41,275 nt of DNA from the NCBI GenBank assembly GCA_947259795.1, contig CAMYNJ010000145.1, positions 1-41,275 of the forward strand, given 5' to 3'. Positions within the stretch are counted from its first letter, which is position 1. The number at the start of each line of letters is the position of its first letter. Shown in pieces: positions 30,595-35,562 of the stretch. The notes beneath the pieces were generated by a model, which ran no database searches, had not been told where the DNA came from, and saw nothing but the letters and a program-made list of their open reading frames with translations. The position numbers and the translations under genes are program-made. Source of the DNA: an uncultured Alphaproteobacteria bacterium (GTDB lineage: Bacteria; Pseudomonadota; Alphaproteobacteria; UBA8366; JADFVY01).

Positions 30595-31289
30595 GCTGGC
30601 TGACCCCGCTCGAAGCCGAGGCGCTGGGCCTCAGCCTGAAGGTCGCCGTCGCCAGTGTCGTCGGCTCCCTGCCCTTCGGGCTGGCTGCGGCCTGGCTGCT
30701 GGCGCGGCGCAACTTCCCCGGCAAAGCGTTGGTCGACGGGGTCATCCATCTGCCGCTGGTGGTGCCGCCGGTAGTTGTCGGCTATCTGCTGCTGGTGGCG
30801 CTGGGCCGGCGCGGGCCGGTCGGTGGCTGGCTGTATGACAGCTTCGGCATCACCATCGCTTTCACCTGGAAAGGCGCGGCCGTCGCCGCCGCCGTCATGG
30901 CCTTCCCGCTTATGGTGCGCGCCATGCGCCTGTCGCTGGAAGCGGTGGACCGGCGGCTGGAAGCCGCGGCCCGCACACTCGGCGCCGGGCGGGCGCGGGT
31001 TTTTATGACCATCACCCTGCCGTTGATGGCGCCGGGCGTTCTGGCCGGAACCATACTGGCCTTCGCCCGAGCGCTGGGCGAGTTCGGGGCGACGATCACC
31101 TTCGTCTCCAATATCCCGGGCGAAACCCGCACCCTGCCCATCGCGCTCTATACCCTGACCCAGACGCCCGAGGGGGAAGCGGCGGCGGCGCGCCTGGCCC
31201 TGATATCGGTCGGCCTGGCGCTGGCCGCGATCGTCGCGTCGGAATGGATCGCGCGCCGCATGGCGCGGCGGCTGGAGGGCGGAACATGA
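30591..31289 (+). CDS. modB: Molybdate ABC transporter permease
   Basis: Membrane permease with RARVFMTITLPLMAPGVLAGTILAFARALGEFGATITFVSNIPGETRTLPIALYT; ATGA overlap with modA. Confidence 0.94.
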   Translation: MSWLTPLEAEALGLSLKVAVASVVGSLPFGLAAAWLLARRNFPGKALVDGVIHLPLVVPPVVVGYLLLVALGRRGPVGGWLYDSFGITIAFTWKGAAVAAAVMAFPLMVRAMRLSLEAVDRRLEAAARTLGAGRARVFMTITLPLMAPGVLAGTILAFARALGEFGATITFVSNIPGETRTLPIALYTLTQTPEGEAAAARLALISVGLALAAIVASEWIARRMARRLEGGT

Positions 31290-32401
31290 TCGAGGTCGAT
31301 GTCCGCCGCAGGCTCGGCGATTTTGCCCTGCAGGCCGCCTTCAACAGCCCGCCGGGCGGCATCACCGCCCTGTTCGGCCGCTCCGGCGCGGGCAAGACCG
31401 CGCTGGTCAATCTGCTGGCGGGACTGGACCGTCCCGACGAGGGCCGCATTGCGGTGGACGACGCGGTGCTGTTCGATTCCGAGGCCGGCATCGATTTGGC
31501 CCCCGAAATGCGCCGGCTGGGCTATGTCTTCCAGGAAGGCCGCCTGTTCCCCCATATGTCGGTGCGCCGCAACCTGGCCTACGGCATGAAGGGCAAGGAT
31601 GGCGCGGCCAATTTTGACCGCATCGTCGAACTGCTGGATATCGGCGCCTTGCTGGACCGCACACCCCATGCCCTGTCCGGCGGCGAGAAACAGCGCGTGG
31701 CGATCGGCCGCGCCCTGCTGGCGAGCCCGCGGCTGTTGTTGATGGACGAACCGCTGGCCTCGCTGGACATGGGGCGAAAGGCAGAAATCCTGCCTTTCAT
31801 CGAACGGCTGCGCGACGAGCTGGCCATCCCTATCGTCTATGTCACCCACGCGATGGAGGAAATCGTGCGCCTGGCCGACATGCTGGTTATCATGTCAGAC
31901 GGCAAGGTGGCCGCCGTGGGACCGGTCGAGGACCTCATGAGCCGCCTCGATTTGCGCCCGCTGACCGGGCGATACGAGGCCGGTGCGGTGCTGACGGTGA
32001 CGGTCGACGGGCACGACGCGAGGCGGGCCGTCACGCGCCTTGCCTTCGACGGAATGACCCTGCTGGTCCCCTATTTCGATATTCCGGTCGGCGAGGAACT
32101 GCGCATCCGCATCCGTGCGCGCGACGTCTCGCTGGCCCTGACGGCACCAACGGATATCAGTATCCTGAACATCTTCCCCGGCCGCGTCGTCGAGATCAGC
32201 GACCGCAAGGACGGCCAGATGGACGTCATCGTCGATGTCGGCGCCAGGATCTGGGCCCGCGTCACCCGCCTGGCGATGGACCGCCTGGCCCTGCAGCCGG
32301 GCAGCGAAGTCCACGCCCTGGTCAAGGCGGTCGCGATAGACCGGCAGAGTCTGGGGAGACGGACAGGTTCCAACTTCCGGGGCGACAAGGGGATACCCTG
32401 A
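31286..32401 (+). CDS. modC: Molybdenum ABC transporter ATP-binding protein
   Basis: GRSGAGKTALVN Walker A; LSGGEKQRVAIGRALL; LLLMDEPLASLD; C-terminal Mop-like domain; ATGA overlap with modB. Confidence 0.94.
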   Translation: MIEVDVRRRLGDFALQAAFNSPPGGITALFGRSGAGKTALVNLLAGLDRPDEGRIAVDDAVLFDSEAGIDLAPEMRRLGYVFQEGRLFPHMSVRRNLAYGMKGKDGAANFDRIVELLDIGALLDRTPHALSGGEKQRVAIGRALLASPRLLLMDEPLASLDMGRKAEILPFIERLRDELAIPIVYVTHAMEEIVRLADMLVIMSDGKVAAVGPVEDLMSRLDLRPLTGRYEAGAVLTVTVDGHDARRAVTRLAFDGMTLLVPYFDIPVGEELRIRIRARDVSLALTAPTDISILNIFPGRVVEISDRKDGQMDVIVDVGARIWARVTRLAMDRLALQPGSEVHALVKAVAIDRQSLGRRTGSNFRGDKGIP

Positions 32402-32478
32402 GCGTTGGTCTACCGCTCATTGGCTGCGACATCCCGCCGCGGTCAAACATCGGAAATACAACAAAAAATACTGTGAAA

Positions 32479-32492
32479 TTGATCTAGATCAA
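32479..32492. promoter_or_regulatory. Perfect FNR/Anr-type box
   Basis: TTGATCTAGATCAA matches TTGAT-N4-ATCAA exactly and is fully palindromic. Confidence 0.75.
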
Positions 32493-32526
32493 AGCTGTGC
32501 CTTAGGGGGTGGGGTAAAAGGAAATC

Positions 32527-32597
32527 CTCTAACCCTCTCTTACCCGCCAAAACTGACCGGGGAATGGTGCAAACCGTTCCCCGGGCGTTTTTTTTGT
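32527..32597 (+). ncRNA. Candidate FNR-dependent small RNA (about 70 nt)
   Basis: FNR box centred at 32485.5 predicts a class II TSS at 32527 with TAAAAG at -12..-7; C/U-rich 5' segment and a strong 3' terminator; lies between convergent modC and gcvP. Confidence 0.5.
32557..32595 (+). terminator. Strong intrinsic terminator
   Basis: CCGGGGAATGGT-GCAA-ACCGTTCCCCGG stem (12 bp incl. one wobble, GNRA-type GCAA loop) followed by GCG then T8. Confidence 0.9.
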
Positions 32598-32640
32598 GGG
32601 GATGGGAAAGGCGTCGCGGGCGATGCCTGCGCGACCTCCC

Positions 32641-35562
<2,922 letters not shown>

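What the first reader, a model, noticed from the sequence alone, without database searches (positions are those of the whole stretch)
32479..32597. Candidate FNR-controlled small RNA between modC and gcvP
A perfect FNR box TTGATCTAGATCAA sits in a gap flanked by two convergent 3' ends, so it has no protein gene to control. A match to the 10 fixed bases is expected about 0.04 times in 41 kb at uniform composition (41275/4^10). Class II geometry (-41.5) places +1 at 32527 and a -10 hexamer exactly at TAAAAG 32515-32520. About 30 nt further is a 12-bp hairpin with GCAA loop and T8. The predicted RNA (about 70 nt) is a C/U-rich 5' arm, UCUAACCCUCUCUUACCCGCC, plus a terminator. That is the architecture of anaerobically induced FnrS-type trans-acting sRNAs, and the C/U arm could pair with Shine-Dalgarno-like purine tracts.
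Basis: partly seen in the sequence, partly recalled or inferred. Interest (0 to 1): 0.75.

Follow-up and report, generated by a model that had tools for sequence, protein, structure and literature searches.

The report
Conserved oxygen-responsive small RNA gene
Between two ordinary metabolic genes of an uncultured bacterium lies a small RNA gene of about 70 bases that appears to be switched on when oxygen is low, and its on-switch and its 25-base pairing arm have been kept almost letter for letter in all seven genomes held of that bacterial family.

Summary
A perfect FNR box (32479-32492) is followed by a class-II-spaced -10 (32515-32520), a C/U-rich arm and a 12-bp hairpin with T8 (32557-32595), in the gap between the convergent genes modC and gcvP. 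Comparative genomics strongly supports an sRNA gene. All seven genomes held of this family (3 genera) carry it; an exact 19-mer occurs nowhere else in 85,462 species. The box is exactly 47 bp upstream of the arm in every one. The 25-nt arm is 100% invariant, while the 22-bp spacer is 45% identical. Upstream neighbours differ, so it is not a modC 3' end. New here: in 5 of 7 genomes a RegA/RegR-type palindrome (window 32426-32440) is centred 52.5 bp (53.5 in one) upstream of the FNR box, suggesting joint control by two redox regulators. Rfam has no match. Hfq is present in 7/7, and a four-cysteine FNR was recovered in 5/7. The likely role is Hfq-dependent pairing with mRNA starts at low oxygen. 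Conserved pairing candidates (sulfide:quinone reductase, thiosulfate transporter) exceed shuffled arms only modestly. No transcript has been seen; expression and targets remain predictions. It works like FnrS/PcrZ but is not homologous to FnrS: a new sRNA family of a known kind.

The parts
32426..32440 (.). GCGACATCCCGCCGC, RegA/PrrA/RegR-type inverted repeat (GCGNC-N5-GNCGC), centred 52.5 bp upstream of the FNR box centre (about -94)
   Evidence: Same motif at the same place in G000, G001, G002 and G006 and 1 bp off in G003; absent in G004 and G005. 15-bp RegA ChIP sites of the same form are in PMC5359404; one mismatch to the RegR consensus GNGRCRTTNNGNCGC (PMC5506826). Background for GCGRCRTN3GNCGC is 0.03 per kb.
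32479..32492 (+). FNR/FixK box TTGATCTAGATCAA
   Evidence: 13 of 14 columns invariant in 7 genomes
32515..32520 (+). -10 element TAAAAG (TANAAA-like in most relatives), 29.5 bp from the box centre
32527..32595 (+). predicted sRNA of about 70 nt (start 32525-32527, end 32595)
   Evidence: class II geometry, conservation and terminator
32525..32549 (+). 5' single-stranded arm UCCUCUAACCCUCUCUUACCCGCCA, proposed seed
   Evidence: 25 of 25 columns invariant in 7 genomes and 3 genera; unpaired in the MFE fold apart from its last A at 32549
32557..32584 (+). terminator hairpin, 12 bp, GCAA loop
   Evidence: 97.6% of cells paired, two pairs with changes on both sides
32588..32595 (+). T8 tail (U-run for termination, possible Hfq site)
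31244..32401 (+). modC, upstream neighbour (not part of the element)
   Evidence: TIGR02142 455 bits
32641..35562 (-). gcvP, convergent downstream neighbour (kept in 6 of 7 genomes)
   Evidence: TIGR00461 1486 bits

Best explanation
This is an independent sRNA gene. Under oxygen limitation an FNR-family activator binds the class II site centred at -41.5 and recruits RNA polymerase to the TAAAAG -10; in most family members a RegA/RegR-type response regulator probably adds input from -94. The transcript of about 70 nt ends at the intrinsic terminator. Its invariant unpaired C/U arm pairs, probably with Hfq, with purine-rich translation-initiation regions of several mRNAs and represses them. Shown here by sequence: the gene's anatomy, its conservation, its independence of neighbours, and the presence of Hfq and FNR genes in the family. 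Inferred: transcription, oxygen control, RegA input, Hfq binding, and repression of aerobic or sulfur-oxidation mRNAs.
For: Found in 7/7 family genomes held. Box-to-arm distance is exactly 47 bp in all. Identity is box 0.96, spacer 0.45, arm 1.00, 5' stem 0.91, loop 0.63, a pattern of selection on regulatory sites plus seed. The hairpin keeps pairing with two double-sided changes. Fold z is -4.2. Upstream neighbours vary: modC in G000 and G004; a PAP2-family gene in G002 and G003; divergent genes in G001, G005 and G006. No plausible ORF: no start codon in the arm, and the hairpin ATG is lost in G002 and G004. Hfq in 7/7. Four-Cys FNR with an ETVSR recognition helix in 5/7. RegA-like palindrome in 5/7 at fixed phase. 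Conserved arm pairing at orthologous start regions: 6 of 197 pairs at or below -22 kcal/mol against 1.15 for shuffled arms, 1/120 shuffles as extreme.
Against: No RNA data. No single target was proven; the pairing excess is modest, shuffles were mononucleotide, gene starts were crude, and part of the effect may be general Shine-Dalgarno affinity (mean shift reached by 15/120 shuffles). Four-Cys FNR was not recovered in G000 (66% complete) or G001. A RegA protein was not found in the partial sequence searched. The RegA-like motif is absent in G004 and G005. Covariation is slight (2 pairs; 56/500 column shuffles reach it).
Confidence: 0.8

Rival explanations
1. The hairpin is only the transcription terminator of modC (and, on the other strand, of gcvP), and the FNR box is incidental.
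For: The gap is convergent, and the AAAA-UUUU flanks of the hairpin could let it terminate in both directions; 3' ends facing gcvP are kept in 6 of 7 genomes.
Against: Box, spacing and arm are conserved where modC is not the upstream gene, and where the upstream gene is divergent (G001, G005, G006); an invariant 25-nt arm is not needed for termination.
Confidence: 0.05
2. Same sRNA gene, but the box is read mainly by another Crp/Fnr-family protein (FixK-, Dnr- or NnrR-like, responding to NO or a FixL-type signal) rather than by an oxygen-sensing four-Cys FNR.
For: Several Crp/Fnr proteins without the Cys set but with ETVSR or ESLSR helices are present; the TTGATC-N2-GATCAA form is typical of such sites (own knowledge); four-Cys FNR was not recovered in G000 or G001.
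Against: Four-Cys FNR is present in 5 of 7 genomes and the missing two are fragmented assemblies.
Confidence: 0.3
3. The RNA does not pair with mRNAs but acts by sponging a protein or another sRNA through the C-rich arm.
For: Target evidence is weak and no single conserved target was found.
Against: Hfq is present, the arm-plus-terminator layout is typical of pairing sRNAs, and there is a modest excess of conserved pairing.
Confidence: 0.12

Closest known systems
FnrS of Enterobacteriaceae
   Same: Class II FNR site at -41.5, short Hfq-type sRNA with intrinsic terminator; FnrS represses functions dispensable without oxygen (PMC3032703; PMC8139620)
   Different: No Rfam match at E up to 5, different locus and arm, different bacterial class; targets unknown here
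Gonococcal FnrS
   Same: FNR-activated class II sRNA with intrinsic terminator, described as a likely functional equivalent of enterobacterial FnrS (PMC3032703)
   Different: Not in the same class of bacteria; no sequence comparison was made here
PcrZ of Rhodobacter sphaeroides
   Same: Alphaproteobacterial low-oxygen sRNA dependent on PrrA (RegA homologue) and FnrL (PMC8139620)
   Different: PcrZ has a PrrA site and possibly only indirect FnrL control, and represses photosynthesis genes; here a perfect FNR box lies at the promoter
RSs0019 and RSs2461 of R. sphaeroides
   Same: sRNAs with FnrL bound in their putative promoter regions by ChIP-seq (PMC4263372)
SicX of Pseudomonas aeruginosa
   Same: Anr-dependent, oxygen-limitation-induced sRNA (PMC10247376)
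   Different: Activates ubiUVT by 5'-UTR pairing; unrelated host group

Membership tests
FnrS (enterobacterial sRNA) | sequence/structure match to a known Rfam family such as FnrS | tested here: not met
   cmscan of 32300-32750 at E up to 5 gave no bacterial sRNA hit; the whole window at gathering gave none
FnrS (enterobacterial sRNA) | class II FNR site centred at -41.5 | tested here: met
   geometry by sequence; the start site itself is not measured
FnrS (enterobacterial sRNA) | FNR-dependent anaerobic induction | not testable with these tools
   no transcriptome
FNR-family-activated, Hfq-dependent trans-acting sRNA (general kind) | free-standing gene with its own promoter and intrinsic terminator | tested here: met
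   by sequence only:
FNR-family-activated, Hfq-dependent trans-acting sRNA (general kind) | conserved single-stranded seed | tested here: met
   25-nt invariant arm, unpaired in the fold apart from its last base
FNR-family-activated, Hfq-dependent trans-acting sRNA (general kind) | Hfq encoded in the genome | tested here: met
   PF17209 in 7/7; binding not tested
FNR-family-activated, Hfq-dependent trans-acting sRNA (general kind) | oxygen-sensing FNR encoded in the genome | tested here: inconclusive
   four-Cys FNR in G002-G006; not recovered in G000 or G001
FNR-family-activated, Hfq-dependent trans-acting sRNA (general kind) | mRNA targets | tested here: inconclusive
   modest excess of conserved pairing; no target confirmed
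PcrZ-type (PrrA/RegA plus FnrL dependent) | RegA/PrrA site in the promoter | tested here: met
   motif in 5/7 including the window; binding not tested
PcrZ-type (PrrA/RegA plus FnrL dependent) | sequence homology to PcrZ | not tested
   PcrZ sequence not in hand

The most novel reading that the evidence does not exclude
A RegA-plus-FNR-gated sRNA that, at low oxygen, shuts down lithotrophic sulfur oxidation (type III sulfide:quinone reductase, TsuA-like thiosulfate transporter, sHdr/DsrE2 genes) in an uncultured Rhodospirillales family, i.e. riboregulation of sulfur oxidation by oxygen supply.
Probability: 0.12. Interest if true: 0.7.

Novelty: new member of a known kind. Interest (0 to 1): 0.5.

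Why it matters
No Rfam family or paper found here describes this RNA. In the held papers that I read, direct FNR-type control of alphaproteobacterial sRNAs rests on two uncharacterised ChIP hits in R. sphaeroides (PMC4263372). A hyperconserved arm, and in most members two redox-regulator sites on one promoter, make this a compact and testable case of oxygen-controlled riboregulation in a lineage known here from metagenome-assembled genomes.

Tried and rejected
(1) Rfam at permissive and gathering thresholds: nothing. (2) Wider homologues: exact 14-mer in 44 genomes of the order, hits only in the family; RNA model R1 in 385 class genomes, one weak extra hit in G355 (E 6.8e-4 per genome, about 0.26 over the sample). 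That hit has a GTGATTGCGATCAC box with TAAAAG at the same 29.5-bp offset, so it is a possible distant relative or analogue, not counted. Other R2 hits in the order lack a convincing box plus terminator. (3) BjrC68 and mmgR matches of the G355 element are below threshold and driven by the terminator. (4) Simple seed-complement patterns before ATG: GGGTTAGAGG none; TAAGAGAGGG and GGGTRRGRGRGG gave scattered hits (cytochrome oxidase subunit I in G006, molybdenum-hydroxylase small subunit in G000 with 13 contiguous pairs, a TRAP-like small permease in G004) that were not seen as the same site in relatives. (5) The fnr mRNA as a feedback target: a good site in G005 only. (6) The TctC-linked hit L063 is not at a gene start. 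(7) Single-genome target ranking does not beat shuffled arms (10/60).

Full report
OBSERVATION. The reported features are present at the stated coordinates. In the 41-kb window a perfect TTGATN4ATCAA is expected 0.02 times in dinucleotide shuffles. The whole 3.04-Mb assembly, 66% complete, has five. The gap lies between the 3' ends of modC and gcvP. With the box centre at -41.5 the start is 32527, and TAAAAG occupies -12 to -7. The RNA folds as a free 5' arm plus terminator, z = -4.2.

CONSERVATION. A DNA search of 60 relatives found the element in all seven genomes of the window's family (three genera) and in none of 53 others. An exact 19-mer from the arm, scanned over 85,462 species genomes, found six records, all MAGs and matching the same relatives, among them the chromosome CP070634.1. 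Correctly oriented alignment shows the box TTGATCTRGATCAA exactly 47 bp before CCTCTAACCCTCTC in all seven. Region by region, mean pairwise identity is 0.96 for the box, 0.45 for the spacer, 0.79 for the -10, 1.00 for the 25-nt arm, 0.75 for the linker, 0.91 and 0.88 for the stem arms and 0.63 for the loop. The hairpin is 97.6% paired with two pairs changed on both sides; sliding the register destroys it, although column shuffles reach the covariation in 56/500. This is what a promoter plus a seed plus a terminator should look like.

INDEPENDENCE. Upstream neighbours are modC (G000, G004), a PAP2-family gene (G002, G003), or divergent genes (G001; and G005 and G006 with a lipocalin-like gene), while gcvP remains the convergent neighbour in six of seven and a LuxR-type gene takes its place in G001. 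The element is therefore not a 3' end of modC. No plausible reading frame exists: the arm has no start codon and the ATG in the stem is lost in G002 and G004.

SECOND REGULATOR SITE. At 32426-32440 lies GCGACATCCCGCCGC. The form GCGNC-N5-GNCGC recurs in five genomes, its centre 52.5 bp (53.5 in one) from the box centre, which is five helical turns; it is missing in G004 and G005. The 15-bp RegA ChIP sites of Rhodobacter capsulatus include GCGACAGGACGCCGC and GCGTCAAAGCGCCGC (PMC5359404), and the Bradyrhizobium RegR consensus GNGRCRTTNNGNCGC differs at one position (PMC5506826). GCGRCRTN3GNCGC occurs 0.03 times per kb in 2.4 Mb of family DNA, though the looser GCGNC-N5-GNCGC is common (11 in the window), so the argument rests on conservation and phase. 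A RegA protein was not seen in the fraction of sequence available, which is no test of absence.

TRANS FACTORS. Hfq is encoded in 7/7. An FNR with the CxxC...C...C set and the ETVSR recognition helix was recovered in G002-G006; in G000 and G001 it was not. Other Crp/Fnr proteins without cysteines are present, so the sensor could also be FixK-, Dnr- or NnrR-like.

TARGETS. Pattern searches gave no site shared by the family. I then compared translation starts between parts of G000, G005 and G006. For G000-G005, 3 of 91 orthologous pairs had both starts at or below -22 kcal/mol with the arm, against 0.43 for shuffled arms. Over 197 pairs the count was 6 against 1.15, with 1/120 shuffles as extreme. 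The three G000-G005 pairs are a type III sulfide:quinone reductase, a TsuA/YeeE-like thiosulfate transporter and a GltD-like oxidoreductase; the best single start in the own-genome sample is HdrB of an sHdr-like locus that also holds HdrC, a second HdrB and a DsrE2-like gene. This is suggestive of repression of sulfur oxidation at low oxygen, but gene starts were predicted crudely, shuffles were mononucleotide, and the general affinity of a C/U arm for Shine-Dalgarno sequences explains part of it.

COMPARISON. FnrS has a class II site at -41.5 and represses functions dispensable without oxygen; gonococci have an FNR-controlled sRNA described as its likely functional equivalent (PMC3032703; PMC8139620). 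In R. sphaeroides PcrZ depends on PrrA and, perhaps indirectly, FnrL (PMC8139620), and FnrL binds at two uncharacterised sRNAs (PMC4263372). The present RNA works like these by architecture. It is not a member of FnrS (no Rfam match). I rate it a new family of a known kind.

A DISTANT LEAD. G355, in another family of the class, carries a GTGATTGCGATCAC box with TAAAAG at the same 29.5-bp offset, a CCUCUCCCC stretch and a strong terminator. The box and offset were not part of model R1, which found it, but its significance over the sample is only about 0.26.

VERDICT. Existence as an sRNA gene is about 0.9 likely, FNR-family control about 0.85, and trans-acting repression about 0.7 (my estimates). 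Expression, oxygen dependence and targets are untested.

Noticed in passing
window 32426-32440 and upstream of the element in L007, L008, L009, L010: RegA/RegR-like palindrome GCGNC-N5-GNCGC at fixed helical phase upstream of the FNR box in 5 of 7 genomes.
   Followed up: yes
L135 6540-13816: sHdr-like sulfur-oxidation locus in the same genome: DsrE2-like, HdrC, HdrB, a second HdrB and a possible lipoate-binding protein, with a TsuA/YeeE-like transporter beside it; several starts pair well with the sRNA arm.
   Followed up: partly
L139 9690-17975 (G000:C162): One of the five perfect FNR boxes of the own genome lies close to a type III sulfide:quinone reductase and a GltD-like gene, both candidate targets.
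   Followed up: partly
L082 1504-1625: G355, another family: Crp/Fnr-type box, TAAAAG at the same offset, C/U stretch and terminator; possible distant relative or analogue.
   Followed up: partly
L069 1501-1525: Molybdenum-hydroxylase small subunit start GGGTAAGAGAGGG gives 13 contiguous pairs with the arm in the own genome; the nearest homologues in five relatives have GGYGGGTA near the start instead.
   Followed up: partly
L003 1501-1514: Perfect FNR box about 80 bp upstream of a small protein of 103 aa of unidentified family.
   Followed up: no
window 32549-32553 with 32587-32591: A-run before and T-run after the hairpin would let it terminate gcvP transcripts on the other strand too.
   Followed up: no
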